Source: JBDRCC01 sp043822065 [NCBI: archaeon] (GTDB lineage: Archaea; Undinarchaeota; CAZHTU01). Taken from it: DNA of 64,000 nucleotides. The notes beneath the pieces were generated by a model. The model did not search any database. It saw nothing but the letters and a program-made list of their open reading frames with translations, and was not told where the DNA came from. Positions 2,606 to 63,930 of this stretch are shown piece by piece (the first letter of the stretch is position 1; each line of letters begins with the position of its first letter). Location of the stretch: the NCBI GenBank assembly GCA_043822065.1, contig JBDRCC010000022.1, positions 14,189 through 78,188 on the forward strand, given 5' to 3'. A program made the translations under genes and the position numbers.

Positions 2606-2777
2606 GCGCCTTTTGCGTTTTTGCCTGGTTCGGGCATTTATCTGTTGCCTACCCAGGTCAATGGAGTACTTGACTCGTTGCAGAGGGAGTGGTTTTGCGT
2701 GAAAGAGTGAGTGAGGCATCCGATAATAGAAAAAATCATTTAAAGAGGTAACATATTAGTATCCGCAAGGGGTTTTG
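2606..2777. other. Intergenic region with glyA promoter
   Basis: These 172 nt contain no credible gene. A TATA-like CATTTAAAG lies near 2736-2744, about 35-40 nt before glyA, and a purine-rich AAGGGG sits just before the start, so glyA seems to have a short leader with a ribosome site. I looked for a glycine-riboswitch-like fold and saw none that I could support. Confidence 0.45.
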
Positions 2778-4031
2778 ATGGGAATCAGGGACAAGCTTCA
2801 GAAAGTAGACCAGCGAGTCTACGATTTGATTAAGAAAGAGGAGAAACGGCAGGAGTACGGGCTCGAGCTGATTCCCTCTGAGAATTATCCTTCCGTCGCT
2901 GTTATGGAGGCGGAAAAGAGCATTATGATGGACAAGTACGCTGAGGGCTACCCAGGCAAGAGGTATTACGGCGGGTGCGCAGTTATTGACGAGGTTGAGA
3001 GCCTGTGCATAGAAAGGGCGTGCAAGCTGATGAAAATGGACCACGCCAACGTCCAGAGCCAGACAGGGAGCATGGCGAACTTCCAGGTATTCCTTAGCAT
3101 GCTTAATTTCGGGGACACCTACCTGTCGATGGACCTGAGCCACGGGGGGCATTTGTCCCACGGGAGCCCGGTTAATTTCTCAGGCAAGTTCTACAATGTG
3201 ATTCCATATCACGTCAAGAGGGAAACTGGAAAAATTGATTACGAGGAGCTCGAGAGGCTGGCAAAGAAGCACAAGCCCAAGCTCATTCTGGCTGGGGCGT
3301 CGGCATATCCTGGAAAGTTCGATTTCAAGAGGTTCAGGGAGATTGCTGACCTGGTTGACGCCTGCCTGCTGGCTGACATTGCGCATTTCGCAGGGCTTAT
3401 AGTCTCCGGCGACCACCCGCACCCGGCGAAGCACTGCGATTTCATAACGAGCACGAGCCAGAAGACCTTGAGGGGCCCGAGGGGCGGGCTAATCTGGTGC
3501 AAAGGTGAGTATGCAAAGCAGATTGACAAGACAGTCTTCCCGATGACGCAGGGCGGACCGTACGAGCACGTGATTGCTGCGAAGGCTGTCTGCTTCAAGG
3601 AGGCGCTCACCTCGGCATTCAAGAAGTACGGGCACCAGATTGCGAAGAACGCCAAGGCGCTGTCCAGCGAGCTGATGAGGCTCGGCTGGAAGCTTTGCAT
3701 GGACGGAACGGAAAACCACCTTATGCTCATGAACATGATTGAGTACCCTGCAAAGGGCAAGGAAGTTCAGGAGCTGCTGGACTCTATCGGGCTGTGCGTG
3801 AACAAGCAGATGATACCTTTCGACCCGGAAAAGCCGTTCACCCCGAGCGGGGTGCGGCTTGGAACGCCCGCAGCTACGACAAGGGGAATGAGGGAGCGGG
3901 AGATGAAAAAGATTGCCGGCTTCATTGACAGGGCTATCAGGAACAGGGAAAACAAGAAAGAGATTTCCAAGATAAAAGGCGAGGTCAGGGGGCTTTGCAC
4001 TAAGTTCCCAATTTACAGGGTGCGAAAATGA
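2778..4031 (+). CDS. glyA: Serine hydroxymethyltransferase
   Basis: PLP enzyme interconverting serine and glycine with transfer of the hydroxymethyl group to THF (or a THF analogue). The PLP lysine is in STSQKTLRGPRGG, at about residue 229; DIAH at about 200-203 supplies the cofactor-binding Asp and His. The ATG at 2778 is preferred over the TTG one codon earlier, because AAGGGG lies just upstream. It is the first gene of a glycine and lipoate run: glyA, lplB, gcvT, gcvH, gcvPA, gcvPB. lplB starts 4 nt before its stop. Folate rather than methanopterin is inferred from ThyX, FolD and FolC in this window. Confidence 0.97.
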   Translation: MGIRDKLQKVDQRVYDLIKKEEKRQEYGLELIPSENYPSVAVMEAEKSIMMDKYAEGYPGKRYYGGCAVIDEVESLCIERACKLMKMDHANVQSQTGSMANFQVFLSMLNFGDTYLSMDLSHGGHLSHGSPVNFSGKFYNVIPYHVKRETGKIDYEELERLAKKHKPKLILAGASAYPGKFDFKRFREIADLVDACLLADIAHFAGLIVSGDHPHPAKHCDFITSTSQKTLRGPRGGLIWCKGEYAKQIDKTVFPMTQGGPYEHVIAAKAVCFKEALTSAFKKYGHQIAKNAKALSSELMRLGWKLCMDGTENHLMLMNMIEYPAKGKEVQELLDSIGLCVNKQMIPFDPEKPFTPSGVRLGTPAATTRGMREREMKKIAGFIDRAIRNRENKKEISKIKGEVRGLCTKFPIYRVRK

Positions 4032-4324
4032 GGATTAAGAACGACTACAAAGTCGCAGGGGGGAAGCTCGTAAGGGTTGAAGGCGAATCAGCAGGAGAAA
4101 GGATACAGAGCATAAGGATAACTGGGGACTTTTTTATGTTCCCGGAAGATGGGATTGAGAAGATTGAGAATGGGCTTTCCGACTGCGCACTTGAGAAGGG
4201 CATGATAGCCAAGAAAACCGCTGATGTAATCGCTAAGAACAAGATACAAGTCCAGGGGTTCACGCCGGAGGACTTGGCGGAGGCAATCGTCGGCGGGGTT
4301 CAAAATGAAACGGCTTCACCTTGA
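4028..4324 (+). CDS. lplB: Lipoate-protein ligase accessory domain LplB
   Basis: A 98-residue protein that matches the C-terminal accessory domain of lipoate-protein ligases, encoded separately. In Thermoplasma the catalytic LplA needs such a separate LplB to activate and transfer lipoate. Here the sequence shows the G-I-R-I-T-G-D-F-F core with FPED and the C-terminal ..VQGFTPEDLAEAIVGG segment typical of this domain. It overlaps glyA by 4 nt and gcvT by 20 nt, so it sits inside the glycine cleavage operon, next to the gene of its likely target GcvH. The catalytic partner is encoded ~12 kb away (lplA, 16178-16942). Confidence 0.82.
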   Translation: MRIKNDYKVAGGKLVRVEGESAGERIQSIRITGDFFMFPEDGIEKIENGLSDCALEKGMIAKKTADVIAKNKIQVQGFTPEDLAEAIVGGVQNETASP

Positions 4325-5426
4325 GGAATGGCACAACCAGCATGCAAGGATGGGTGAGTTCGCCGGCTGGCACACGCCGATATGGTATACGAGCATAAAT
4401 GACGAGCACATGACGGTTAGGGAAAAGGCAGGGGTGTTCGACATCTCGCACATGGGCGAATTCTATTTTGAGGGGAAGGACGCAGAGGCGTTTCTTGACA
4501 AAGTATGCGTAAGCGACATCGCAGGGCTGACGGCTGATGTTTCAAAGTACACATGCATACTGAACGACAACGGCGGCATAATGGACGAGGCAGTTATCTA
4601 CAGGATAGACGCGACCCACTTCAAGATGGTGTGCGACGCAGTCTGCTATGACAAGCTCAAGGGCTGGTTTGCAAAGGTCAGGGAAGGGATGGAGCTAAAT
4701 GTGATTGACAAGACGGAGGACCTTGTCCTTCTCGCGATACAGGGGCCGGACGCGTATTCAGTGTCTGACAAGATGGGGATTGCGGCGAGGGAGATGCCGA
4801 GGTTCGGGTTCAGGCATATAGCTTACAAAGGCAGGGAAGTCCTGCTATCAAATTCAGGGTACACTGGGGAGAATGGCTTCGAGCTGTTGTTTGATGATAA
4901 GAAGCCAGTACACCCTGACCCGAAGAAGGTCGGCGAGCCGACGTTTGCGCTTCAGGTATGGAATGACCTACTGTCGGCTGGCGCAAAGCCGGTCGGGCTT
5001 GGCTGCAGGGACAGCCTGAGGATTGAGTGCGGATTCACTTTGTACGAGCATGAGGACACTGAGGAAGTCAACCCCCTTGAGGTTAACTTCAACTGGATGA
5101 TAAAATGGGATAAGGATTTCATAGGCAAGGAAGCGCTGGTTAATGCGAAGGCTGCAGGAATAAAAAGGAAAATGAAGGGATTTGAGATGGCTGACCGCGC
5201 GATACCCAGGCAAGGGTATGATGTAATGCAGAATGGAAAAAAGGTCGGGGTTGTCACGAGCGGGACGATGCCGCCGACATCTGGGAAGGGCATAGGGCTC
5301 GGGCTTTTCGACTCGGCAGTCGAGGGGGACGTCGACATCATGATCCGTGGAAAGGAAACAAAAGCTAAAATAGTAAAGCCGCCTTTCTACGACAAGCAAA
5401 AGTACGGAATGAAACGAGAGGCTTAG
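4305..5426 (+). CDS. gcvT: Glycine cleavage system T protein (aminomethyltransferase)
   Basis: Releases ammonia from the aminomethyl-lipoyl arm of GcvH and forms methylene-THF. The 373-residue protein has the GcvT hallmarks: an HMGEF segment near residue 50, AIQGP near 145, SNSGYTGENGFELL near 185 and a C-terminal VTSGTMPPT barrel segment. It starts 20 nt inside lplB. Its last codons (YGMKRE plus one residue and a stop) are repeated 126 nt downstream, just before gcvH, on the far side of a palindromic element; this suggests that the gene end was duplicated by an insertion. Confidence 0.96.
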   Translation: MKRLHLEEWHNQHARMGEFAGWHTPIWYTSINDEHMTVREKAGVFDISHMGEFYFEGKDAEAFLDKVCVSDIAGLTADVSKYTCILNDNGGIMDEAVIYRIDATHFKMVCDAVCYDKLKGWFAKVREGMELNVIDKTEDLVLLAIQGPDAYSVSDKMGIAAREMPRFGFRHIAYKGREVLLSNSGYTGENGFELLFDDKKPVHPDPKKVGEPTFALQVWNDLLSAGAKPVGLGCRDSLRIECGFTLYEHEDTEEVNPLEVNFNWMIKWDKDFIGKEALVNAKAAGIKRKMKGFEMADRAIPRQGYDVMQNGKKVGVVTSGTMPPTSGKGIGLGLFDSAVEGDVDIMIRGKETKAKIVKPPFYDKQKYGMKREA

Positions 5427-5528
5427 AAAAGTATAATGGTCGGTAAGGAAAAGGTATCGGAACCTACGAATCTGCAAGATTCGTACGAACGTACAAGCGA
5501 AGCTTGTAGTAAACGTAGTTTTTCTGAT
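5427..5528. repeat. Palindromic (REP/MITE-like) element between gcvT and gcvH
   Basis: About 100 nt separate gcvT from gcvH in an otherwise tightly packed operon. They contain two strong hairpins: TACGAATC/GATTCGTA around a TGCAA loop (5465-5485) and TACAAGC/GCTTGTA around GAA (5492-5508). AACCTACG (5461-5468) and CGTAGTTT (5514-5521) could form an alternative outer stem. The element is flanked by two copies of the gcvT end, at 5403-5426 and 5529-5552. It looks like an inserted palindromic repeat; no second copy is visible in this window. Confidence 0.55.
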
Positions 5529-5552
5529 TACGGAATGAAAAGGGAGGTTTAA
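5529..5552 (+). repeat. Second copy of the gcvT 3' end, holding the gcvH ribosome site
   Basis: Encodes the same tail as gcvT (YGMKRE plus one residue, then a stop) and aligns with 5403-5426 over 24 nt with four substitutions. This downstream copy contains the GGGAGG that serves as ribosome site for gcvH at 5555. It is therefore probably the original gcvT-gcvH junction, and the copy now ending gcvT is the duplicated one that has drifted. Confidence 0.5.
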
Positions 5553-5554
5553 GA

Positions 5555-5959
5555 ATGCAGGTAGGTGACTACAACATAAAGGAAGGTTTGTACTACCTTG
5601 ACTCGCACGAGTGGGTTGAGATTAAGGGGAATACTGCGACAATAGGCCTGAGCGACTACGCACAGAAGTCGCTTGGTGATGTTGCATACATCGACGTGCC
5701 GCAGGTTGGCAAGGAAGTGAGCCAGAAGGCTGAGCTTTGCGAAATTGAGTCGGTCAAGGCTGTTGACCATGTCTATTCGCCGCTGTCCGGAAAGGTTGTA
5801 GGGGCGAACAGCGAGCTAACGAATTCGCCGGATAAGATAAACAGCGACCCGTACGGTGCGTGGATTGTGAAGATTGAAATTAAGGACGAAAGCGAAAAGG
5901 CGAACCTGAAGGACGCCAACGCGTATGCTGAGTTCGTCAAGGGGCTTGCTGCAAAATAA
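5555..5959 (+). CDS. gcvH: Glycine cleavage system H protein
   Basis: Lipoyl carrier of the glycine cleavage complex; it shuttles the aminomethyl group from GcvP to GcvT. The lipoyl lysine lies in EIESVKAV at residue 68, and the SDYAQKSLGDVAYIDVP segment at about 33-49 is typical. Its 134 residues are standard. A strong GGGAGG ribosome site is 8 nt before the ATG. gcvPA starts 2 nt after its stop. Lipoylation would need LplA/LplB or LipA, all of which are in this window. Confidence 0.97.
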   Translation: MQVGDYNIKEGLYYLDSHEWVEIKGNTATIGLSDYAQKSLGDVAYIDVPQVGKEVSQKAELCEIESVKAVDHVYSPLSGKVVGANSELTNSPDKINSDPYGAWIVKIEIKDESEKANLKDANAYAEFVKGLAAK

Positions 5960-5961
5960 TC

Positions 5962-7287
5962 ATGCGGTATATTCCAAACCTTTCAAGAAAGGACGAACTG
6001 CTGAAAGAGGCAGGGCTGAAAAGGGAGGACCTTTTCGGCGACGTCCCGAAGGACTGCAGGACGGCTGGGCTCAACCTCCCTGAGCCGCTGCCGGAGCTTG
6101 AGGTCAGGCGGAAGGTTATAGGGATTCTTTCCAAGAACAAAGTTCCGAGGGCAAGCTTCCTCGGCGGCGGGGTCAGGAACCACTTTGTGCCGGAGCACGT
6201 AAGGCATTTGGCAGGCAGGTCGGAGTTTTACACTGCGTACACGCCGTACCAGCCGGAGATTTCTCAGGGGATGCTCCAGACACTGTTCGAATACCAGTCA
6301 ATGGTTGCGGAGCTGACCGGGCTGGAAGCCGTCAACTCATCCATGTATGACTTTTCCACCGCACTTGCTGAGGCTGCATTGATGGCAAAGAGGGCGACCA
6401 GCAGGAGCGAATTCTTGGTTCCAAAGCTAATGTCGCCAAAGAGGAAGGCCGTGCTGAGGACGTACGTTCAGGGCGCAGGAATGAGCCTAATCGAAATTGA
6501 AGCCCAGAAGAATGGCCAGCTTGATTTGGAGGACCTGAAGAAAAAAGTCTCTGACAGGACGGCGGGCGTTTACGTTGAAAACCCGGCATACTTAGGGTAT
6601 TTTGAAGAGGGAGTTGAGGAAGTTTCTGATATAATCCACAAGGCAGGCGGTTTGTTTGTCGTGGGCGCAGACCTGATATCGCTCGGAATCGCAAAGGCGC
6701 CGGGGGACTACGGCGCAGACATAGTCATCGGAGAGGGGCAGCTGCTTGGGAACCCGCCCTCCTACGGCGGGCCGTACGTAGGCGCGTTCGCCGTCAGGGC
6801 AGACCAGGGCCTCGTGAGGAAAATGCCAGGCAGGATAATCGGGATGACGGAAGACGCGGACAAGAACCGCGGGTTCGTGATGACTCTCCAGACAAGGGAG
6901 CAGCACATAAGGCGGGAGAGCGCGACATCGAACATCTGCTCGAACGAGGCGCTGTGCGCGGTGACCGCGGCGATATACCTCGCCACGCTTGGGCGAAATG
7001 GGCTGAGAGAAGTTGCAGAGGCGTGCGCGAAGAATGCGAATTATGTTATGCGGGAGATTGGTAAGCTGGATGGGTTTGAGGCACCAGTGTATGATTCAAA
7101 GCACTTCTGCGAGTTCACAGTGAAGTGCCCCAAGGACGTTGACGGGATAAACCGCAAGCTGATGGAAAATGGGATTCATGGCGGGTCTAAGGTCGAGTTC
7201 CTAAAGGATACTGCACTGTACGCGGTGACCGAAGCCCACACGAAGAAGGACGTCGATGAGCTGCTGGAGGGGCTGAAGAATGTATAA
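5962..7287 (+). CDS. gcvPA: Glycine dehydrogenase (decarboxylating) subunit 1
   Basis: First half of the two-subunit glycine decarboxylase (P protein) found in archaea and many bacteria. Visible family segments are YTPYQPEISQG near residue 93, NSSMYD near 125, and GEGQLLGNPPSYGGPY near 257. The 441-residue length is normal for the subunit that lacks the PLP lysine. It overlaps gcvPB by 8 nt, so the two chains are translationally coupled, as expected for an obligate heteromer. Confidence 0.96.
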   Translation: MRYIPNLSRKDELLKEAGLKREDLFGDVPKDCRTAGLNLPEPLPELEVRRKVIGILSKNKVPRASFLGGGVRNHFVPEHVRHLAGRSEFYTAYTPYQPEISQGMLQTLFEYQSMVAELTGLEAVNSSMYDFSTALAEAALMAKRATSRSEFLVPKLMSPKRKAVLRTYVQGAGMSLIEIEAQKNGQLDLEDLKKKVSDRTAGVYVENPAYLGYFEEGVEEVSDIIHKAGGLFVVGADLISLGIAKAPGDYGADIVIGEGQLLGNPPSYGGPYVGAFAVRADQGLVRKMPGRIIGMTEDADKNRGFVMTLQTREQHIRRESATSNICSNEALCAVTAAIYLATLGRNGLREVAEACAKNANYVMREIGKLDGFEAPVYDSKHFCEFTVKCPKDVDGINRKLMENGIHGGSKVEFLKDTALYAVTEAHTKKDVDELLEGLKNV

Positions 7288-8734
7288 GCAGGCACACGGC
7301 GACAGCAGGCTTATATTCGAGAAGTCGGACTCTTCGACAGGGTACTCCCTGCCAAAGCCATTCGGGACGGAATTTAGCATTCCCGAAAAGCTGAAGCGGA
7401 AGGAACTGAACCTCCCTGAGGTCAGCGAAGTCGAGGTCGTCAGGCATTACACTAATTTGTCCCAGCGGAACTTCGGGGTAGACAATGGGTTTTACCCGCT
7501 TGGGAGCTGCACCATGAAGTACAACCCGAAGATTAACGAGGCGATGGCTGGGCACGAGCTTGTTGTGGATATGCACCCGGAGCAACTGGAGGAAACTGCG
7601 CAGGGCTGCCTTGAGCTGGCGTATAATCTTGGCGAAGTCCTGAAAGAAGTAAGCGGAATGGACGCAGTAAGCCTCCAGCCGGCCGCCGGCGCGCACGGCG
7701 AGTATATAGGATGCATGATAATCCGCGCCTGCCACAAGGGCAAGGGGCAGGACAGGAATGAGATAATCGTCCCGGATTCGGCGCACGGGACAAATCCGGC
7801 GTCGGCGGCGATGGCTGGGTTCAAAGTGGTCCAGGTGCCTTCGCTTGAGGACGGGACAGTTGACATAGAAGCGCTGAAGGCGGCGGTGTCTGGCAGAACT
7901 GCCGGGCTCATGCTAACCAACCCGAACACCCTTGGAATATTCGAGCACAACATCAAAGAGATTGCGAGGATTGTGCACGGGGCGGGCGGGCTGTTGTATT
8001 ATGATGGGGCAAACTTAAACGCGATAATGGGCTTCTGCAAGCCAGGCGAGATGGGGTTTGACGTCATGCACATAAACCTGCACAAGACCTTTGCCACACC
8101 GCACGGCGGCGGCGGGCCTGGAAGCGGCCCGGTGCTTGTGAAAAAGGAACTGGCAAAATTCCTGCCAGTGCCAGTTGTTGAGAAAACGGGCAGCAAGTTC
8201 AGGCTGAATTATAACCTGCCGGAGTCGATTGGGCCTTCAAAGTCTTCGATAGGGAATTTTGGTGTGCTGGTCAAGGCGTACACTTACACGCTGACGATGG
8301 GGAAGATGCTCAAGGACGCCTCAGAGATTGCCGTCCTGAACTCGAACTACATGGCGCAGAAGCTGAAGCAGGACTATGAGATGCCGGGGAAGGAAATCCG
8401 AAAGCACGAGTTTGTGCTGTCAGCGGAGAAAATAAAAACCGAAACTGGCTGTTCGGCGCTGGACATCGGAAAACGGCTTTTGGACTACGGGCTGCATGCC
8501 CCGACGATTTATTTCCCCCTGATTGTCCACGAGGCGCTGATGATTGAGCCGACTGAGACGGAAGCCAAGGAAAATCTTGATAGGTATATTGACGCCCTGA
8601 AAAAAATAAAGGAAGAGGCGTACAAGAGCCCTGACCTTCTGCACGGGGCGCCGGCAAACACCTCGGTCAGGCGGCTGGATGTTACCAAGGCGATAAGGGA
8701 GCCTGTCCTCAGCTGGAAGATGGTTAAGAAGTAA
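7280..8734 (+). CDS. gcvPB: Glycine dehydrogenase (decarboxylating) subunit 2
   Basis: PLP-bearing half of the P protein; it decarboxylates glycine and hands the aminomethyl group to the lipoyl arm of GcvH. The PLP lysine is in HINLHKTFATPHGG at about residue 269. LGSCTMKYNPK near 74-84 and the AAGAHGEY loop near 135-142 are typical. At 484 residues it is complete. It is the last gene of the glycine run; a non-coding region with a candidate small RNA follows. Confidence 0.97.
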   Translation: MYKQAHGDSRLIFEKSDSSTGYSLPKPFGTEFSIPEKLKRKELNLPEVSEVEVVRHYTNLSQRNFGVDNGFYPLGSCTMKYNPKINEAMAGHELVVDMHPEQLEETAQGCLELAYNLGEVLKEVSGMDAVSLQPAAGAHGEYIGCMIIRACHKGKGQDRNEIIVPDSAHGTNPASAAMAGFKVVQVPSLEDGTVDIEALKAAVSGRTAGLMLTNPNTLGIFEHNIKEIARIVHGAGGLLYYDGANLNAIMGFCKPGEMGFDVMHINLHKTFATPHGGGGPGSGPVLVKKELAKFLPVPVVEKTGSKFRLNYNLPESIGPSKSSIGNFGVLVKAYTYTLTMGKMLKDASEIAVLNSNYMAQKLKQDYEMPGKEIRKHEFVLSAEKIKTETGCSALDIGKRLLDYGLHAPTIYFPLIVHEALMIEPTETEAKENLDRYIDALKKIKEEAYKSPDLLHGAPANTSVRRLDVTKAIREPVLSWKMVKK

Positions 8735-8762: not shown

Positions 8763-8770
8763 GTATAAAT
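8763..8770 (+). promoter_or_regulatory. TATA box for the candidate RNA
   Basis: GTATAAAT lies 21-28 nt before the first base of the long outer stem of the candidate RNA. This is the expected archaeal TATA-to-transcription-start distance and supports an independent transcript. Confidence 0.5.
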
Positions 8771-8790
8771 GATAAGATGCTTATCTTCTA

Positions 8791-8910
8791 TGCTGCGGAA
8801 ATGGCGTATTGCGGCCGGCAACGTCTGCAATGGATCATGCACTGAAAATGTGCATGTGAACCGATTACAACTTGGGCACCTTTTCTGCAGCACTTTTTGC
8901 GTTTTTTAGA
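8791..8910 (+). ncRNA. Candidate structured small RNA, novel
   Basis: An 11-bp outer stem pairs 8791-8801 (TGCTGCGGAAA) with 8882-8892 (TTTCTGCAGCA), with one G-U pair; after a T-T mismatch two further G-C pairs extend it. Inside it sit a 7-bp hairpin CATGCAC/GTGCATG (8836-8842 with 8850-8856) and a 5-bp stem ATTGC/GCAAT (8808-8812 with 8827-8831), giving a multi-branch junction. A TATA box precedes it at the right distance, and T-runs at 8894-8898 and 8902-8907 can serve as an archaeal terminator. It is not a tRNA, 5S or SRP RNA by any motif I can see. It could also be an untranslated regulatory RNA from the gcv operon end. Not confirmed. Confidence 0.45.
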
Positions 8911-8950
8911 GGGTAGGTTAGGTGATGCTGGCAAAATTCTAATATTTTTA

Positions 8951-9150
8951 ATTATTTTCAATATTGTAGATAATTAAAATAATGAGATTTTGGTACGCAT
9001 ATTTGAAAAAATCGGCGTTTTGCATATGTTTTTAGTTAATTTAACAGTATTATTGGCTATAAATAATTATTTTCATTATTGTAAATATTTAATTAGGATA
9101 GAATAAAAGTTTAATTAGTGTATTATTTTCAATATAGAAATGAATAAATT
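8951..9150. repeat. Three AT-rich imperfect repeats
   Basis: A motif close to ATTATTTTCAATATTGTA occurs at 8951-8968, 9065-9082 and 9122-9135 (the third only partly), in the same orientation and embedded in almost pure A/T sequence. Spacings are irregular (about 114 and 57 nt). They could be binding sites for a regulator or chromatin protein, or simply low-complexity drift. There is no coding potential. Confidence 0.4.
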
Positions 9151-9924: not shown

Positions 9925-12630
9925 ATGGTGCAACACCATAACTGGCACAGCATCGACATAGAGGATACTGCAAGGAGCCTCAGTGCGGACATCCGCGGGC
10001 TTGCGAGCGGGGACGCATCCCGCCGGCTTGGGGAGTACGGCAAAAACAAGCTCGAGGGCGGCAAGAGGATAACCACTGTCGAAATTTTCCTCCGCCAGTT
10101 CAAGAACTTCATAATATACGTCCTGATTGGTGCTGCAGCAATCTCGTACTACCTTGGCGAAATGCTTGATGTTTGGATAATAACCTTTGTAATATTCTTT
10201 GTTGCGTTCCTGGGGTTCTACCAGGAATTCCGCGCCGAGCGGTCAATGGAGTCCCTCAAGGAGCTTTCTGCTCCGCACGCGGTGGTCATGAGGGACGGCG
10301 TCAAGAAGGAGATTCTCGCTGAGGAAATAGTGCCAGGCGATGTCATCCTTCTCGAGGCGGGGCGCAGGATCCCAGCGGACGCCAGGATTATAGACGCCAC
10401 GGACCTCAAGTCTGATGAGTCAGCCCTCACTGGCGAATCAATACCGGTATTGAAGAAGGCTGGGACCCTGCCTCCGGACGTCCCGCTCGCAGAGAGGGAC
10501 AATATGGTCTTCGTCGGGACGCACATAGTCGACGGAATCGGCAGCGCCCTCGTTGTCTCCACTGGCATGCACACCGAGATAGGCAAGGTTGCGAAGATGA
10601 TTGAGCAGGTCGGGGAAATTGAGACGCCAATAAAGACCAAGCTGAACACGCTCGGAAAAAGGCTGACGATGATGGTACTTGCGGTCTGCGCTCTAGTAGT
10701 AGTTGTCCAGTATGCCAGAGGGGCAAGTTTGACCAGCACGATGGTTGTGGTCGCGGCGCTTGCAGTTTCAGGAATGCCAGAGAGCCTGCCTGCAGTGGTT
10801 ACGGTCACCTTAGCGTCCGGGGTCAAGCGGATGAGCAAGCACAATGCTATAATACGGGTACTCCCCACGGTCGAGACACTAGGCTCCGCCACGGTCATTT
10901 GCACTGACAAAACCGGCACGCTGACGCACGGCACCATGACCGTCAGGAAATTATTCGCAAACTCAGAGATGCTTGAACTCACAGGCAGGGGCTCGGAGCT
11001 GGAGGGGGACTTTTATCTCAAAGAAAAAGCCGTCGGCCCAAAGGGCGTTGAGTTCCTGCTCAAAGCGGCTGCCCTGTGCAACGACGCCTACTTGGAAGAG
11101 GAGAAAGAGCGCGAGTCAGAGGAGCTGATAGTCATCGGAGACCCAACAGAAGGAGCACTCCTCGTTGCGGCAGCAAAGGGGAAAATACTCCAGGAGCAGA
11201 TAAAGAAGGAATACCCTCGCATTGGCGAGGTCCCGTTTAACTCAGACCGGATGCGGATGACTACGGTGCACACCACTGAGAAAGAGAAAAAAATTGCGTT
11301 TACAAAGGGGGCACCTGAAAAAATCATAGACTTGTGCAACCGGATTTACCTCAGGGGAACGGTCACAAAGATGACTGATAAGCAGCGCAAGGAGCTGCAT
11401 GACGTCTACCGCAGGATGGGTGAGGACGCCCTGCGGGTGCTTGCAGTAAGCTACCGTGAGGTGCCTGACAAGGTTGAGGACTACACCGAGACGCTTGAAA
11501 CTGGCTTGGTGTTCATTGGCCTCATGGGGATGATAGACCCGCCCAGGGAAGAGGCAATCTCGGCGATAACCGCCTGCAAGACGGCTGGAATCAAGGTGAT
11601 AATGATAACTGGTGACAACAAGATAACTGCTGAGGCTATCGGAAAGGAGCTCGGGCTAACCCAAAAGGGCTCAAAAATCATCACCAGCGCGGAGCTTAAC
11701 AAGATGAGCGACGCCGAGTTCGATGTGATAGTAGAAGACGTCGCGATATATGCCAGAGCGTCCCCCTCTGACAAGCTCAGGATAGTATCCGCTCTCCAGA
11801 AGAAGGGGCATATTGTCGCAATGACTGGGGACGGTGTCAACGACGCGCCAGCGCTGAAGAAGGCGGACGTCGGCGTCGCCATGGGCAAGGGGGGGACTGA
11901 CGTCGCACGCGAGGCTGCGGACATGATACTGACAGACGACAACTTCGCGACAATAGTCAATGCCATAAGCGAAGGGAGGACTATTTTTGACAACATAAAG
12001 AAGTTTGTCTACTACATGCTCGCTGGCAACATCGCGGAGATAACAATAACTGCCACGGCATTGATTTTCGGTGCACCCTTCCTGCCATTCACCGCCCTGA
12101 TGATACTCTGGATAAACCTTGTCACCAGCGACTTCCCCGCGATGGGCTTGGGGCTGGAGCCGCCGGAGACTGCCATAATGAGCCGCCCCCCACGGAACCC
12201 GGACGAGAACGTCCCCTCTATGCGCCTGATACTGGGGCTTACCGAAGTCGGCTCGATAATTTGCATCGGCGTCATCCTGCTCTTTGTCATGAAGGTCGGC
12301 ATTTGGCAGATGCCGCTCGATAGGGCGAGGACTGTGGCCTTTGCGACCCTGATAGCATTCGAGCTGTTCCACGCATTCAACTCGCGCTCCCTGACGCAGT
12401 CGATATTCACCATGGGGCTTATGAGCAACAAGCCGCTCCTCGTAGGCGTAGCTGCGTCGGTGGCCACGAGCCTGTTTGTTATATACTACCCGCCGCTCCA
12501 GAGCATATTCGGCACGAGCGCGCTGACACTTTGGGACTGGGCAAGGGTTCTTGCGGTGGCATCAACGGTGCTGATTTTCGTCGAACTGAAAAAGCACTTC
12601 GGCAGGGAAGTAGAGTACCAGAAGGTCTAG
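9925..12630 (+). CDS. P-type cation-transporting ATPase, divergent ion site
   Basis: Membrane ion pump of the P2 family (Ca2+/Na+ type). It has an N-terminal actuator region, the phosphorylation site DKTGT with Asp328, KGAPE in the nucleotide domain, TGDGVNDAP in the hinge and about ten membrane segments over 901 residues. The ion-binding helices differ from canonical Ca2+ pumps: M4 reads PESLP (residues 285-289) instead of PEGLP, and M6 reads NLVTSDFP (731-738) where the other ATPase of this window has NLLTDGLP. M5 keeps GNIAE. Ion specificity is therefore open. It is convergent with the gene at 12627, with a 4-nt overlap. Confidence 0.92.
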
Positions 12631-46014: not shown

Positions 46015-49000
46015 GTGGAGATAGAAGACTTATTGAAAACCCACCCAGGGCTTGAGAAGGTGGTAGGCATACTCAGGCAGAGCGGGGTCCAGAAGCTTTA
46101 TCCGCCCCAGGCCGAGTGCTTCAGTAAAAAAGTCCTGGACGGAAAAAACCTTGTCCTTTCTATTCCGACGGCATCCGGGAAAACCCTTGTCGCGGAGATA
46201 GTCATGATGCAGCACGTCCTCGCAGGCAAGAAGGCAGTATACCTCGTGCCCCTGCGGGCGCTCGCCTCTGAGAAGTACCAGGAGTTCAGGGAAAAATACT
46301 CTGGGCTCTGCAGGGTGGGCATGTCGAGCGGGGATTACGACAGGGTGGATGCGGGGCTTGGCGCCTGCGACATAATCATCCTGACGATAGAGAAAATGGA
46401 TTCGCTCATGCGGCACGACGTAAACTGGCTAAGCAAGATAGGCGTGGTCGTCGTCGACGAGATACACCTGCTTGACTCGCCGGACAGGGGACCGACCCTT
46501 GAGATGGTGATAACAAAGCTGAGGAAGTACAAGCCCTCAATCCTTGCCCTTTCTGCGACAATAGAGAACAGCGACGAGCTGGCGCAGTGGCTTGGCGCGG
46601 AGCTCGTTGAGAGCGACTTCAGGCCGGTCAGGCTTTCGAGGGGGGTTTTCCTGGACGGAAAGGTGAGCTTTGACATAAAGGAGGACATTGAGCTGAATGA
46701 TGAGGGCGACATTTCGCTTGTCCTTGCAAAGGACACTGTCTTGCAGGGGGGGCAGTCCCTTGTATTTGTAAACAGCAGGCGCTCGGCTGAGGCGGAAGCA
46801 GAAAAAATCTCAAAGTCAATGTACTCGCTTTTGGGGGAAAAGGAGCGGAAGCTCCTTGCAAAGGCCGCAGAGGATGTGCTTGGGGCGCTTGAAACCCCTA
46901 CCAAGCAGTGCAAGAGGCTTGCGAACTGCATACGGGGAGGCGCGGCGTTCCACCACGCAGGGCTGCACCTGAAACAGAGGGCTGTCGTGGAATCCTCATT
47001 CAAGGCCAACCTGATAAAAGTGGTTTCGGCGACGCCGACCCTTGCGGCCGGGGTAAACCTGCCAGCAAAGAGAGTGGTAATAAGGGATTATAAAAGGTAT
47101 ACTTCGTATGGGCTTGAACCGATTCCTGTTTTAGAGATCCATCAGATGTGCCTACCTTACACTGAAAAGATTTTGCTTGGTGATGGGTCGGAGGAGGAGA
47201 TTGGACGGCTAGTAGAAGATAAAAAAAGGATAGGCGTTCTTAGTTATAACCAAGAATCTGATTCGATAGAGCCAAAGAAAATAGAGAGATTTTATAAAAG
47301 CAAGTCGAGGCATTTCGTCGATATCGAGGTCTCTATAGGACATAAACTGAGGCTTACGCCAGACCATCCGGTTTTAGTATTCAACAACGGTAAAAAAACT
47401 TGGAAACGGGCTTGCAAACTGAAAAAAATGGACATGGTGCTTTGTCAGAATACTACACGCCGCCGCATGAAAAGCATACCTTACTTCTATGAATTCCTTA
47501 ACAAAGACAGGTCGTATTTGGTTGGAAGAGGCGAGCTAATAAAGGATGCAAGGGAGAGGCTGAGATGTACGGAAAAGGAACTTGCTAAGAGTATCGGAGC
47601 TAGTTATAGATCGATGTGGCACTACAAAACAAATAGAAAAGCCATGCCAGCGAAAATTGCATTGGAATTATGCAAGATTCTGGAGTTGGATGGCGCTGGG
47701 ATTACAAAAGTCTTTTCTAAAGTGAAAACTGCATATGGAAACACTATTAAACTCCCTCCAAAGATTTCTGAGGATTATCTGTGGTTGTGCGGCCTTATAG
47801 CAACAGACGGGAATCTTCAAGAGGCTTATGACCGATGTGGTTCGAGGTACTGTAAGATACGTATTTTCAACAATAACCGAAAAATAATCAACAGGGCTAC
47901 GTCTATATTGCGAGAATTCAATTTAGAGCCATGCTGTAGAAAGGTCGGAGATAAGTGTCACGCCATTGAGGTAGGTGCAACGCTGCTTGCAGATATCATT
48001 TCTATAAATTTTGGCATACCCTATGGAAACAAAACGGCTATTGTTAGGGTGCCAGATATAGTAAAATCGATGCCCCCGGCATATATTGGCTCATATCTCG
48101 CAGGTGTTTTCGATGGTGACGGCAATTACTTTGAACTTAAAAAGAGTGGTGTAGTAAAGGGCAGGCGAGTGCTATTTTCTACAGGGAGCAAACAGTTTGC
48201 AGATGGAATTCAAAAACTTTTGACACGGATAGGTATAACCAGCACAGTTAGAAAGGAGCGTGGCGGAAAAACATTTGGGATACGGGGAAAACTGGTAACC
48301 TTTCCAAGAGCAAATTACACCATCAGCTTCTGCAAGAAAGAGTATATCAATAGATTCCATAGATTCGTCAGACCTGTGAAATGTTCAATACCGGCTGTCA
48401 GGTATAGCGACTACCACAATATAAACAAGTTCTTTGACAGACCTGCTGAATACTCTTCCGTTCCAATAAAGAGGATTAGGCGAGTAGAGCTAAAGGATCC
48501 GGTGACTGCGTATAACTTGGGAGTAAAAGATAACAACAATTACATAGCGTCTAACATACTGGTACACAACTGCGGCCGTGCCGGAAGGCCGAAGTATGAC
48601 AGTGACGGGGAGGCCGTCCTGATAGCCAAAAGCCTTCCTGAGTACGAGCAGCTCTGGGAGCATTACATAGAGGGGCGGCCGGAGCCGATATCCTCGAAGC
48701 TTGGCGTCGAGCCGATACTAAGGACGCACATCCTTGGCATAATATCCCAGGGGCCGCTGACGCGGGAAAGCCTGGACAAGATGTTTGAGAGCACGTTCTA
48801 CGCATTCCAGTACGGAGATGTCTCCGCACTAGAGGAAATAATAAGCAGGGTTTTGGACTCCCTCTTTTCCTGGGGATTCCTAGAAGAGGAAGACCTGAAG
48901 TTCAGGTGCACCCGCCTTGGGAAGCGGGTGGCTGAGCTCTATATCGACCCGCTGACGGCATACGAATTCATCCGGCTTTTCGAGACTGAGATGGAGGAGA

Positions 49001-49542
49001 TGGTCCTCCTCACAATGATTTCCGATACGTCGGAAATGGGGATGCTTCCGGGCGTAAGGAGCGCTGAGGAGCCGTTCCTGTACGAGGAGTTCGAAAAGTA
49101 CAGCCTTGACGAGGACAAGATACGGGCGTTCAAGAACGCGCTTGTGTTCAGGGACTGGATGGATGAAAAGACTGAGGACGACATACTCGAGAGGCATAAC
49201 GTCGCGCCAGGGATACTCAAGGTCAGGCTGGACATTGCAGACTGGCTCCTCTACTCCTGCGTAGAGATAAACGCAATCCTCAAGAGGAATGAGGCGGCAA
49301 AGATGGTCCGCAGGCTCCGCACGCGCCTCAGCTACGGAGTGAAGGAGGAGCTGTCCCTGCTCGTAAGGGTCCGCGGAATAGGCCGCGTCAGGGCAAGGCG
49401 GCTGTTTAGCGCTGGCATAAAAAAGCCGTCTGACCTGAACAGCAGAAACTGCACAAAAGTGTCAAACCTTCTTGGAAAAAAGACTGCGGAGAAGATATAC
49501 TCTGACTTAAGAGCAAAAATCAGCAAGCGCGGAGTTCAGTAG
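46015..49542 (+). CDS. hel308: Hel308-type DNA helicase with intein
   Basis: Ski2-like 3'-5' DNA helicase for replication-fork repair. Motif I PTASGKT at 51-57, DEIH at 148-151, LSATIEN near 180 and SATPTLAAGVNLPAK near 342-356 are clear. Motif VI (QM/CGRAGRPKYD) is split by a 474-residue intein at residues 379-852. Without it the protein has 701 residues, the normal size, ending with a winged helix, a ratchet domain and an HhH region (VRGIGRVRARRL). GTG start. The 3' end overlaps the convergent sepF gene by 7 nt. Confidence 0.95.
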   Translation: MEIEDLLKTHPGLEKVVGILRQSGVQKLYPPQAECFSKKVLDGKNLVLSIPTASGKTLVAEIVMMQHVLAGKKAVYLVPLRALASEKYQEFREKYSGLCRVGMSSGDYDRVDAGLGACDIIILTIEKMDSLMRHDVNWLSKIGVVVVDEIHLLDSPDRGPTLEMVITKLRKYKPSILALSATIENSDELAQWLGAELVESDFRPVRLSRGVFLDGKVSFDIKEDIELNDEGDISLVLAKDTVLQGGQSLVFVNSRRSAEAEAEKISKSMYSLLGEKERKLLAKAAEDVLGALETPTKQCKRLANCIRGGAAFHHAGLHLKQRAVVESSFKANLIKVVSATPTLAAGVNLPAKRVVIRDYKRYTSYGLEPIPVLEIHQMCLPYTEKILLGDGSEEEIGRLVEDKKRIGVLSYNQESDSIEPKKIERFYKSKSRHFVDIEVSIGHKLRLTPDHPVLVFNNGKKTWKRACKLKKMDMVLCQNTTRRRMKSIPYFYEFLNKDRSYLVGRGELIKDARERLRCTEKELAKSIGASYRSMWHYKTNRKAMPAKIALELCKILELDGAGITKVFSKVKTAYGNTIKLPPKISEDYLWLCGLIATDGNLQEAYDRCGSRYCKIRIFNNNRKIINRATSILREFNLEPCCRKVGDKCHAIEVGATLLADIISINFGIPYGNKTAIVRVPDIVKSMPPAYIGSYLAGVFDGDGNYFELKKSGVVKGRRVLFSTGSKQFADGIQKLLTRIGITSTVRKERGGKTFGIRGKLVTFPRANYTISFCKKEYINRFHRFVRPVKCSIPAVRYSDYHNINKFFDRPAEYSSVPIKRIRRVELKDPVTAYNLGVKDNNNYIASNILVHNCGRAGRPKYDSDGEAVLIAKSLPEYEQLWEHYIEGRPEPISSKLGVEPILRTHILGIISQGPLTRESLDKMFESTFYAFQYGDVSALEEIISRVLDSLFSWGFLEEEDLKFRCTRLGKRVAELYIDPLTAYEFIRLFETEMEEMVLLTMISDTSEMGMLPGVRSAEEPFLYEEFEKYSLDEDKIRAFKNALVFRDWMDEKTEDDILERHNVAPGILKVRLDIADWLLYSCVEINAILKRNEAAKMVRRLRTRLSYGVKEELSLLVRVRGIGRVRARRLFSAGIKKPSDLNSRNCTKVSNLLGKKTAEKIYSDLRAKISKRGVQ
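47149..48570 (+). mobile_element. Intein with LAGLIDADG homing endonuclease and internal HTH
   Basis: It begins with Cys (CLPYTEKILLGDG, block A), has the block-B histidine in LTPDHPVLV and ends in ..NNNYIASNILVHN before a Cys (+1) of the host. Two LAGLIDADG-type motifs, LCGLIATDG and LAGVFDGDG, mark a homing endonuclease. Between splicing and endonuclease parts lies a helix-turn-helix-like segment (ERLRCTEKELAKSIGASYRS). Base use is more A/T-rich than in the host gene. It sits in helicase motif VI, a site where loss is hard because only exact removal restores function. Confidence 0.93.
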
Positions 49543-58444: not shown

Positions 58445-58996
58445 CTACTTGCCCCGGTTCTTGTTCGCGGCAAGTGAAGGCCGCATTTTCTCTGCGCCCT
58501 TGCCCTTGTTACGCAGACCGCGGGATTTCTTGCCTGCAGAGGTCAAGCCCCTGAAGACGCGGTTCTTGTGCTGCGGCTCTGCAATCCAGGCGAGGTTCTT
58601 GTCGCCTTTTATCGCAGGGTGGTCTGGGTCAATCAGGATTACCTCGAAATATGCTGACTTCCCGTCCTCAGCAAGATAATACGAGTTCAGGACCTCAAGG
58701 TTCAGGTACCTCCTCTGGACCCGCTCCTCAGCAATCCACTGGAGGGACTTCTTAGGTGAATACCGGTTTATGCCCGCGTGTGTGGGCCGTCTTCCGCCAG
58801 CAGGCCTCGGCCTTGTCCTTCCGCCGCGCTTTACCCGCGCGCGGACAATGACGAAGCCCTGCTTCGCCTTGTATCCAACGGACCTCGCCCTGTCGAGCCG
58901 TGTGGGCCTCTCGACGCGGACTATCGCGTCGGATTTCCTCCACGCGATAAGGCTTGGCTTGTCTTCAGTCAGTTTCAGGTATTTGTAGAATGACAT
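58445..58996 (-). CDS. rpl15e: Ribosomal protein eL15
   Basis: Large-subunit protein of 183 residues. [30 protein letters not shown] near the N-terminus and [27 protein letters not shown] are characteristic. The internal ATG 58996 (MSFYKYLK) is the normal eL15 start, with GGAGGATAAG just before it. It stands at the head of the superoperon. A ~80-nt leader follows a CTTTATAATG box near 59072-59081. Confidence 0.94.
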
Positions 58997-61272: not shown

Positions 61273-63930
61273 ATGGAAAGCAACTGGTACAAGGTGCCTC
61301 ACCGGGAAGTCCTGAAGCTTCTTAACACCAGCGAGAGGGGGCTTAGCAGCGAAGAGGTAAAAAAGCGGCTTTTTGAGCACGGCCACAATGAGCTCCCGAA
61401 GCCGTCAAAGAAGACAATCTTTGAGCATCTGGTTGAGCAGTTCAAGAACACGCTTATAGTTATACTGATAATAGCGACCATAGTTTCCGCCCTCCTCGGG
61501 GAGATTCTTGATGCGGCAGTTATAATGATAATAGTCCTGCTGAACGCAGTGATGGGGCTTGTCCAGGAATTCAAAGCGGAAAAGGCGCTAGAGGCGCTTG
61601 AAAAGATGGGTGCGCCGCATGCCATTGTCCTTAGGGACGGCAGCGAGGAGCGTGTTGAGGTTAGGGAGCTTGTTCCAGGCGATATTCTGCTTCTTGAAGT
61701 CGGGAACCGGATTCCTGCAGATGCCAGGCTTATTGAGAGCATTAACTTGAAGGTCGACGAATCTGCATTGACAGGGGAAAGCGCCCCGGTCTCGAAGAGG
61801 ATTGAGCCGCTTTCAGAGGAAAAGCCGCTCGCAGAGAGGTCGAGCATGCTTTACATGAACACCCTCGTCACCTATGGGCGGGCTAAGGCAGTCATTGTCG
61901 AGACGGGCAAGAGGACAGAGGTGGGCAAGATTGCAACCCTCATAGAGCAAAGCGAAGAGGTAAAGACCCCGCTCCAGGAGAAGCTTGCAGTCTTCGGCAA
62001 GAAGCTCGGCATGTTCATACTCGTAGTCTGCGCCGTTGTCGCAGTGGGCGGCGTCCTGCGCGACCATATGCTTTGGATGGATGCCTTCCTCGTGGGCGTA
62101 AGCCTGGCTGTTGCTGCCATACCCGAAGGGCTGCCCGCAGTCGTGACCATTGTCCTAGCAATCGGGCTGCAAAAGATGGCTACTAAAAATGCTGTCGTCA
62201 GAAAGCTCCAGGCAGTTGAGAGCCTCGGAAGCGCGGACGTCATATGCTCAGACAAGACTGGGACGATAACAAAGAACCAGATGACTGTTACAGAGGTCTG
62301 GACGGACAGGAGGGTTGCAATCAGCGGAGAGGGCTACAGCCCAGTTGGGAAGTTCTCCATAAACGGAAAAGAGGTAACCCCTGCCAAGGACGGGCACTTG
62401 TCCCTCCTCCTTAAGACTGGGATGCTGTGCAACAATGCCCACCTCAGGCACGGCGCGCAATGGGAGGTCGTTGGTGACCCGACTGAAGGGAGCCTTGTCG
62501 TCGCCGGGAAAAAGGCCGGGCTGAATGAGGAGACGCTCAGAAGGGATAACAAGTTTGTGGATGAGATACCGTTTGACTCGAACCGGAAGATGATGAGTTC
62601 CATATACCGCGCTGGCGGGAAGGAAACTGCGTATGTCAAAGGCGCCCAGGAAGTGATAATCAGGCTCTGCACAAAGAAGTACAAAAACGGCAAGGTCGTG
62701 AAGATGGGCGAGAGGGACAGGCAGTCCCTGCTCAAGCAGAATTCTGAGATGGGCTCACGGGCCCTGCGCGTGCTGGCGCTTGCCTATCGCGACGTATCAA
62801 AGCCCTTCACTAGCGAGAATGTCGAGAAGGACTTAGTATACTTAGGGATGGCTGGCATGATAGACCCGCCAAGGGAGGAAGCCATTGCCGCGATAAGGGA
62901 GTGCAACATAGCAGGCATACGGGTAGTGATGATAACTGGTGACAACCTCATAACCGCGACGGCGATAGCGAAGCAGGTCGGGCTTCCGGTCAAGAGGGTC
63001 CTCACGGGGATGGAGCTTGAGAAGATGTCGCTCCAGGAGTTTGAGGGGATTGTTGAAGAGGTATCCGTCTACGCCAGGGTCTCGCCGGAGCACAAGGTGA
63101 AGATTCTTGAGGCACTGAAGGACAAGGGGCACATAGTCGCCATGACCGGCGACGGGATAAACGACGCCCCCGCCCTGAAGAGGGCTGATATAGGCGTTGC
63201 GATGGGCATCTCCGGCACGGACGTCGCACAGGGCGCCGCAGACATGATTCTGCTCGACGACAACTTTGCCTCCATCGTGAACGCGGTAGAGGAGGGCAGG
63301 GGGATATACGACAACATAATGAAGTTCATAAAATACCTGATATCGACCAACACCGGTGAGGTGCTGACGGTCTTTTTCGGGATGATGCTCAAGTTCCCCT
63401 TGGTTGTCCTGCCGCTCCAGCTTCTTTGGATAAACCTGCTGACTGACGGGCTCCCGGCAGTTGCCCTTGGCTTCGAGCCTAAGGACAAGGATATAATGAC
63501 GAGGAAGCCGAGGAAGCCGGACGATCCGATATTCGGCAGGGAGCTCATAACAACCGCAGCCCTAGTCGGCAGCATAATGTGCATCCTTGCGCTGTTCACG
63601 TTCTGGTGGTATGGCTTTGGCATTAAGGCGCAGACCATGGCGTTCACCCTCCTGGCTGTGCTCCAGCTGTTCAACGCCCAGAACTGCAGGAGCGAGAAGT
63701 CGCTGTTCTCAATAGGCCTGCTTAGGAACAGGAAGCTGATATGGGCAATACTTGTCTCGTTCGCCCTACAGCTCGCAGTTGTCTACCTCCCACCGCTCCA
63801 GGTGGCCTTCCACACGACAGCCCTCAGCCTTATGGAATGGGGCTGGATATTCCTGATGGCGTCCACGGTAATCGCCGCCATGGAAATCAAAAAGATGCTC
63901 GCTAGGAAAGCCGGCTCAGGCGCTCAGTAG
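61273..63930 (+). CDS. P-type Ca2+-like cation-transporting ATPase
   Basis: An 885-residue P2-type pump with canonical motifs: the phosphorylated Asp327 in SDKTGTI, PEGLP (284-288) in M4, KGAQEV, TGDGINDAP and M6 NLLTDGLP (721-728). These match PMR1/SERCA-like Ca2+ (or Ca2+/Mn2+) pumps. It is a paralogue of the pump at 9925, whose M4 and M6 motifs differ. The ATG is 25 nt after the ksgA stop. The extreme 3' end overlaps a partial minus-strand frame. Confidence 0.93.
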   Translation: MESNWYKVPHREVLKLLNTSERGLSSEEVKKRLFEHGHNELPKPSKKTIFEHLVEQFKNTLIVILIIATIVSALLGEILDAAVIMIIVLLNAVMGLVQEFKAEKALEALEKMGAPHAIVLRDGSEERVEVRELVPGDILLLEVGNRIPADARLIESINLKVDESALTGESAPVSKRIEPLSEEKPLAERSSMLYMNTLVTYGRAKAVIVETGKRTEVGKIATLIEQSEEVKTPLQEKLAVFGKKLGMFILVVCAVVAVGGVLRDHMLWMDAFLVGVSLAVAAIPEGLPAVVTIVLAIGLQKMATKNAVVRKLQAVESLGSADVICSDKTGTITKNQMTVTEVWTDRRVAISGEGYSPVGKFSINGKEVTPAKDGHLSLLLKTGMLCNNAHLRHGAQWEVVGDPTEGSLVVAGKKAGLNEETLRRDNKFVDEIPFDSNRKMMSSIYRAGGKETAYVKGAQEVIIRLCTKKYKNGKVVKMGERDRQSLLKQNSEMGSRALRVLALAYRDVSKPFTSENVEKDLVYLGMAGMIDPPREEAIAAIRECNIAGIRVVMITGDNLITATAIAKQVGLPVKRVLTGMELEKMSLQEFEGIVEEVSVYARVSPEHKVKILEALKDKGHIVAMTGDGINDAPALKRADIGVAMGISGTDVAQGAADMILLDDNFASIVNAVEEGRGIYDNIMKFIKYLISTNTGEVLTVFFGMMLKFPLVVLPLQLLWINLLTDGLPAVALGFEPKDKDIMTRKPRKPDDPIFGRELITTAALVGSIMCILALFTFWWYGFGIKAQTMAFTLLAVLQLFNAQNCRSEKSLFSIGLLRNRKLIWAILVSFALQLAVVYLPPLQVAFHTTALSLMEWGWIFLMASTVIAAMEIKKMLARKAGSGAQ

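What the first reader, a model, noticed from the sequence alone, without database searches (positions are those of the whole stretch)
8763..8910. Candidate new structured RNA after the glycine cleavage operon
Seen: a TATA box 21-28 nt before an 11-bp outer stem, a multi-branch interior with a perfect 7-bp hairpin and a 5-bp stem, then two T-runs. Together they look like a self-contained transcription unit of about 100 nt. Inference: an independent small RNA, or a regulatory RNA acting on glycine/folate genes. It matches none of the tRNA, 5S, SRP, RNase P, C/D or H/ACA layouts I know.
Basis: partly seen in the sequence, partly recalled or inferred. Interest (0 to 1): 0.7.

Follow-up and report, generated by a model that had tools for sequence, protein, structure and literature searches.

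The report
New cloverleaf RNA in small archaea
Next to a glycine-breakdown operon in an uncultured archaeon lies a gene for a small folded RNA that matches no RNA family in the Rfam library; a distant archaeon carries the same folded RNA in an unrelated place, with paired letters changed together, so it is a real RNA of its own, though its job is unknown.

Summary
Window 8792-8891 folds into a closed four-helix RNA (8790-8895: -43.0 kcal/mol, z -4.5), with a TATA box 28 nt upstream and T-runs after the closing helix. No Rfam family matches credibly. A covariance model of this one sequence found a full-length homologue in a distant genome, G515 (E 1.1e-10); the reverse search returned only the window locus (E 8.5e-15). 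The copies share 60 of 114 columns, yet each forms 35 of 37 pairs, 12 with both partners changed; 0 of 20,000 permutations of the substitutions reached either value. Both GNRA loops, a bulged U and part of the P4 loop are kept, as is a TATA-like box 28-29 nt before P1. The flanking genes are unrelated, so glycine/folate control is not supported. A 39-codon ORF across it has non-coding codon usage and is not open in G515. Most likely this is a stand-alone trans-acting RNA, probably protein-bound; the function is inferred. Only two copies are known, the shared fold is not the minimum-energy fold of the second, and no transcript was examined.

The parts
8764..8769 (+). TATA box (TATAAA), first base 28 nt before the first base of P1; purine-rich AAAAGGG just upstream
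   Evidence: the homologue has TTAAAT 29 nt before its P1. 27-29 nt upstream, TATAAA occurs for 0.46% and any of nine AT-boxes (TTAAAT among them) for 2.5% of 4558 intergenic positions (rule chosen after seeing the sites)
8771..8785 (.). palindrome GATAAG-ATG-CTTATC between TATA box and RNA start, possible operator; not seen in the homologue
8790..8897 (+). proposed RNA transcript, about 105 nt; start inferred from TATA spacing (A8790 or G8792), end from the first T-run
   Evidence: the box-A distance of about 26 nt is from passages of PMC3491384; no transcript data
8792..8807 (+). P1 5' strand (16 positions paired with 8876-8891; two are mismatched in this copy)
   Evidence: 6 pairs changed on both sides
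8808..8831 (+). P2 hairpin, 9 pairs, GCAA tetraloop 8818-8821 conserved
   Evidence: 3 pairs changed on both sides, loop 4 of 4 identical
8836..8856 (+). P3 hairpin, 7 bp plus a U-A pair closing a GAAA tetraloop (8844-8847), conserved bulged U at 8849
   Evidence: 2 pairs changed on both sides; loop and bulge identical; one pair has a gap in the homologue
8861..8875 (+). P4 hairpin, 4 bp, 7-nt loop UUACAAC (4 of 7 loop positions conserved, xUAxAAx)
   Evidence: 1 pair changed on both sides, 1 of 4 pairs broken in the homologue; the weakest helix, not predicted by RNAalifold
8876..8891 (+). P1 3' strand
8892..8907 (+). 3' tail: ACUU conserved in the homologue, then T5 (8894-8898) and T6 (8902-8907), terminator-like; the homologue has no T-run of 5 or more
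   Evidence: the bacterial-type hairpin-plus-T scan finds no terminator here
8790..8909 (+). open frame of 39 codons over the RNA, judged not to be a gene
   Evidence: codon score -0.33 bits/codon; 0.6% of 777 in-frame gene chunks score as low, 65% of 1162 other-frame chunks score as high; the homologue has stops in all three frames

Best explanation
Window 8790-8897 is a stand-alone gene, single-copy in the window, for a structured non-coding RNA of about 105 nt. It has its own archaeal TATA promoter, and transcription probably stops in the T-runs just after the closing helix. The RNA forms a long closing helix (P1) leading into a four-way junction with three hairpins: P2 with a GCAA loop, P3 with a GAAA loop and a bulged U, and P4 with a 7-nt loop. 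Shown here: homology, compensated helices, conserved loops, similar promoter spacing, unrelated gene neighbourhoods. Inferred: it is transcribed, it acts in trans, and the conserved tetraloops, bulge and P4 loop are contact sites for a protein or for tertiary packing, so that it works as the RNA part of a small particle rather than as a cis switch for the glycine cleavage operon.
For: Fold z -4.5; the lowest of 90 intergenic grid windows is -2.95. Full-length homologue G515:C12:90129-90241, E 1.1e-10, in a search of 39 genomes; the reciprocal model finds only 8786-8899 in the window, E 8.5e-15. Letters alone: alignment score 7.0 against a maximum of -1.5 in 5000 dinucleotide shuffles. 95.9% of cells paired against 31.5-48.6% with partners slid by 1-3 columns. 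G515 forms 35 of the 37 pairs and 12 are changed on both sides; 0 of 20,000 permutations of the substitutions reach either value. Loops are conserved more than stems: 17 of 26 unpaired interior columns identical against 38 of 74 paired ones. TATA-like box 28 and 29 nt before P1 in the two copies. Gene neighbourhoods differ. No credible Rfam match for either copy.
Against: Only two copies. No convincing third was found in searches of 28, 392, 39 and 394 genomes (the two large searches use stricter filters, the sets overlap, and the 392 were drawn from one large phylum), nor in 1.24 Mb of partial sequence from four genomes of G515's phylum. The shared fold is not the minimum-energy fold of the G515 copy: -29.0 against -39.0 kcal/mol, with P1 common to both. 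One P4 pair is broken and one P3 pair has a gap in G515. In the simple shuffle control, 1 of 500 shuffles reached the observed measures. G515 lacks a T-run of 5 or more. No expression data. Nothing tests the protein-particle role directly.
Confidence: 0.7

Rival explanations
1. Cis-acting element of the glycine cleavage operon (3'-UTR structure or terminator) or leader/riboswitch of the downstream HAD hydrolase.
For: It lies about 55 nt after the gcvPB stop (8734) on the same strand and upstream of the HAD gene at 9199.
Against: Its own TATA box lies between gcvPB and the RNA, and T-runs and then about 290 nt of AT-rich DNA lie between RNA and HAD gene. The homologue has neither neighbour. No riboswitch family matches.
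Confidence: 0.06
2. A diverged member of a known stable RNA (tRNA-like, 5S, SRP, RNase P, C/D or H/ACA guide) that the models miss.
For: The four-way cloverleaf layout with a 7-nt third loop is tRNA-like in topology (comparison recalled). G515 gives a sub-threshold LOOT RNA match, E 0.25.
Against: ARAGORN finds no tRNA at either copy. Rfam matches up to E 10 are at chance level: window, E 7.1 on the other strand; G515, LOOT at 17.9 bits against a cut-off of 46.4 with a different layout starting in the promoter, and a CRISPR repeat model at E 7.9 downstream. No box C, and CUGA/ACA are not shared. P1 has 16 pairs instead of the 7 of a tRNA (recalled).
Confidence: 0.1
3. Leaderless small-protein gene of 39 codons (8790-8909) whose mRNA happens to fold.
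For: ATG at 8790 sits where a leaderless start would be expected; the open frame is uninterrupted.
Against: Codon score at the non-coding level; an open frame of this length arises in 14% of letter shuffles. The homologue has stops in all three frames. Substitutions follow pairing.
Confidence: 0.02
4. RNA of a mobile element shared by horizontal transfer, which would explain the patchy occurrence in two distant genomes.
For: Convincing match in only 1 of 67 genomes searched in small sets, and that one is far from the window's lineage.
Against: Single copy in the window and one match in the whole G515 genome. By eye, no transposase among the ORFs of 120 aa or more 10 kb either side in G515. No match in phage or plasmid records; 22 viral contigs that fit a loose motif score at chance level.
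Confidence: 0.1

Closest known systems
tRNA (RF00005) cloverleaf
   Same: closing helix plus three hairpins; no spacer between third hairpin and closing helix; 7-nt loop on the third hairpin (tRNA layout recalled)
   Different: 16-pair closing helix, GNRA loops on hairpins 1 and 2, 4-nt joints, no tRNA detected by ARAGORN or Rfam
LOOT RNA (RF03000)
   Same: both carry a GAAA-capped hairpin; G515 scores 17.9 bits
   Different: the match starts in the promoter region, uses a different helix layout and is far below the 46.4-bit cut-off; the window copy does not match
Stand-alone sRNA genes of Nanoarchaeum equitans (PMC3491384, passages seen)
   Same: some carry their own promoter and terminator; box A about 26 nt before the start and a T-stretch are described for tRNA genes and the H/ACA sRNA
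   Different: those are C/D and H/ACA guides and tRNAs; this RNA lacks the boxes
Orphan structured RNAs found by comparative genomics (e.g. PMC2864571, passages seen)
   Same: recognised by compensatory changes; many are said there to act in trans
   Different: none of the 4227 Rfam families searched matches this RNA credibly

Membership tests
stand-alone structured non-coding RNA | helices kept by compensatory changes in a homologue | tested here: met
   12 of 37 pairs changed on both sides; 0 of 20,000 permutations reach it; one homologue only
stand-alone structured non-coding RNA | own promoter, independent of the neighbouring genes | tested here: met
   TATA-like box 28-29 nt before P1 in both copies, different neighbours; sequence level only, no transcript
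stand-alone structured non-coding RNA | discrete transcript | not testable with these tools
   no RNA data held
stand-alone structured non-coding RNA | no conserved reading frame | tested here: met
   codon score non-coding; stops in all frames of the G515 copy
tRNA | detected by tRNA models | tested here: not met
   ARAGORN and Rfam find none at either copy
C/D box guide RNA | box C (RUGAUGA) and box D (CUGA); motifs recalled | tested here: not met
   no box C in either copy; CUGA only in the window, inside P3
H/ACA guide RNA | ACA just after the hairpin; motif recalled | tested here: not met
   ACA only in the P4 loop of the window, absent from G515
glycine/folate riboswitch | match to a riboswitch family, and gene context kept | tested here: not met
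   no Rfam riboswitch match; context differs in G515
LOOT RNA (RF03000) | score at or above 46.4 bits with the family layout | tested here: not met
   17.9 bits for G515, different layout; no match for the window

The most novel reading that the evidence does not exclude
This is a previously undescribed RNA class of deeply branching small-genome archaea: a compact four-way-junction RNA with two fixed GNRA tetraloops that packs into a defined tertiary fold and serves as the core of a new ribonucleoprotein (or a ribozyme), old enough to have diverged to 53% identity while keeping its fold, and missed because existing RNA libraries hold few sequences from these lineages.
Probability: 0.35. Interest if true: 0.8.

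Novelty: new member of a known kind. Interest (0 to 1): 0.6.

Why it matters
Few structured RNAs are known from the small-genome archaea, whose genomes are largely unannotated for RNA (general knowledge). An RNA in which two distant copies each form 35 of 37 pairs and share their loop letters is under selection and probably has a specific partner. The two sequences and the named structure make it findable in any genome, so its distribution, transcript and binding partner become directly testable.

Tried and rejected
Glycine/folate regulation: rejected on genomic context. Small protein: rejected. Guide RNA boxes, tRNA and Rfam membership: rejected. Weak model hits rejected as chance: two in G770 (E 0.0035 and 0.072) and one in G906 (E 0.81) among 392 genomes, and three in G240 (E 0.06-0.84) among 39. 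By eye the G770 and G240 stretches read as a protein repeat containing TENV; I did not annotate those genes. DNA similarity searches gave only short matches at chance level or none. Pattern scans of viral contigs gave 0, 0 and 22 stretches, and the 22 score at chance level (best E 0.82).

Placing the window's genome: no genome is held for it. By FtsZ the best genome seen was G238 at 69%; 0 of 34 and 0 of 19 genomes passed the strict cut-offs in two other phyla. Other proteins gave no close relative.

The gcvPB scan (77 loci) served to reach genome handles. I read the region after gcvPB in L004 and searched the whole genomes of L004 and L001 by DNA similarity. The other 75 loci were not searched for the RNA.

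Paper searches on DPANN, archaeal or orphan structured RNAs showed no description of this RNA in the 8-15 titles and abstract openings listed each time. I read passages of PMC2864571 and PMC3491384 only. The library lacks most subscription papers.

Full report
What is there. The window is archaeal DNA by its gene content (inference); no whole genome is held for it. Between the end of gcvPB (8734) and a HAD-family hydrolase gene (9199) lie 464 bases. Their first part holds a TATA box (8764-8769), a palindrome (8771-8785), the proposed RNA (8790-8897) and T-runs (8894-8898, 8902-8907). The rest is AT-rich with three imperfect 29-nt repeats.

Is the fold more than chance? 8790-8895 folds at -43.0 kcal/mol against a shuffle mean of -28.96, z -4.49. 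On a grid of 2412 windows of 106 nt over both strands, 30 shuffles each, 1 had a lower z than this locus scored with the same script (-4.56) and 6 were at or below -4. Of the 90 grid windows that are nearly free of ORFs, none was at or below -3. The opposite strand folds too, less well (z -3.7). A fold of this strength is unusual for intergenic DNA here, but by itself it would not have proved an RNA.

The homologue. A covariance model (R1) of the window sequence alone was searched over 28 genomes (none at E of 1 or less), 392 genomes (two genomes, judged chance) and 39 genomes. The last gave G515:C12:90129-90241, E 1.1e-10, 46.3 bits, model positions 1-114; three weak hits in G240 in the same search were rejected. 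A model of the G515 copy alone (R3) searched against the whole window gave one match at E of 10 or less, 8786-8899, E 8.5e-15. R3 used the structure that I had refined on both copies, so it is not blind to the window. The letters alone also show kinship: global alignment score 7.0, against a mean of -18.2 and a maximum of -1.5 over 5000 dinucleotide shuffles. The G515 copy by itself folds with z -3.06. The genomes are distant: FtsZ gives no match at 1e-130 or better in any of the 19 genomes of G515's phylum, and in about 390 kb of G515 only three window proteins match at 1e-15, at 28-48% identity.

Compensation. With one gap in 114 columns, 60 columns are identical. For the 37-pair structure, 95.9% of cells pair: each copy forms 35 pairs; the window has two mismatches in P1, and G515 has one broken pair in P4 and one gapped pair in P3. 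Sliding partners by 1-3 columns drops pairing to 31.5-48.6%. 12 pairs differ on both sides between the two copies: 6 in P1, 3 in P2, 2 in P3, 1 in P4; in the tool's own shuffles 1 of 500 reached this. When the same substituted letters were permuted among the changed sites, pairs formed averaged 23.4 (maximum 32) and doubly changed pairs 2.9 (maximum 10) in 20,000 trials, against 35 and 12 observed. RNAalifold on the same two rows predicts 28 of these pairs without being told the structure, 10 of them changed on both sides; it leaves out P4 and the upper part of P3. The structure I named was refined on these two sequences, which favours it in the slid-partner control and to some extent in the permutation control.

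What is conserved outside pairs. GCAA (P2 loop) 4 of 4, GAAA (P3 loop) 4 of 4, the bulged U after the closing pair of GAAA, the P2/P3 joint 3 of 4, the P4 loop 4 of 7, the P3/P4 joint 1 of 4, the P2 mismatch 0 of 2; in all 17 of 26 columns, against 38 of 74 paired columns. The four bases after P1 (ACUU) are shared, while the six bases before it share one. Loops fixed and stems free to vary is the pattern of an RNA whose loops touch something; that reading is inference.

Promoter and ends. The first base of a TATA-like box is 28 nt (window) and 29 nt (G515) before P1. In the window, 27-29 nt upstream, TATAAA occurs for 0.46% and any of nine AT-boxes for 2.5% of 4558 intergenic positions (the rule was set after seeing the sites). 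In Nanoarchaeum equitans, box A about 26 nt before the start and a T-stretch after the gene are described for tRNA genes and the H/ACA sRNA, and some C/D sRNAs have their own signals (PMC3491384, passages). The start at A8790 or G8792 is thus a prediction. The window has T5 and T6 after P1; G515 has no run of five. A scan for bacterial-type terminators finds none.

Neighbourhood. In G515 the RNA lies between a gene with a DUF7118 match and an AAA_14/DUF4143 ATPase gene. Proteins predicted from the 20 kb around it (ORFs of 100 aa or more) have no match in the window at E of 1e-4 or better. It is single-copy in the window, and the whole-genome search of G515 shows one match. This argues against a cis role for glycine cleavage genes.

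Against this reading. Only two copies are known. The R2 search over 394 genomes found G515 alone, which is in the model; its first look passed no or one candidate in the genomes listed, so absence there is weak evidence. Partial sequence of G512, G513, G514 and G509, 1.24 Mb in all, gave nothing. The shared fold costs 10 kcal/mol over the minimum-energy fold of the G515 copy, which keeps P1 but rearranges the interior. P4 is weakly supported. Possible causes are tertiary contacts that the energy model ignores or a partly wrong interior; more homologues would decide.

Verdict. The fold and the homology are shown. A stand-alone RNA gene is strongly supported. Action in trans as a protein-bound RNA is the most likely mechanism and is inferred. 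No Rfam family fits, so the RNA appears to be a new family within the known kind 'orphan stand-alone structured RNA'.

Noticed in passing
window 8949-9148: Three imperfect copies of a 29-nt AT-rich repeat (TAATTATTTTCAATATTGTAGATAATTAA) between the RNA and the HAD gene, start-to-start spacing 115 and 56; possible regulator sites.
   Followed up: no
window 8771-8785: Perfect palindrome GATAAG-ATG-CTTATC between the TATA box and the predicted RNA start, absent from the G515 copy; it could be an operator controlling the RNA.
   Followed up: partly
window 46015-49542: A 1175-aa helicase-like open frame that looks interrupted by a long in-frame insert of the intein type (by eye from the translation).
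   Followed up: no
window 2775-8734: Glycine cleavage operon whose gcvPB has its best matches (up to 59%) mostly in bacteria, with a few distant archaeal MAGs; possible horizontal acquisition.
   Followed up: no
window 9925-12630 and 61273-63930: Two related cation-transporting P-type ATPase genes (by eye) about 50 kb apart; one locus of G515 matches both, at 43% and 48% identity.
   Followed up: no
window 58820-58960, minus strand: Another strongly folding stretch (z -3.5, 1 of 200 shuffles as good) that overlaps an open frame of 70 aa or more.
   Followed up: partly
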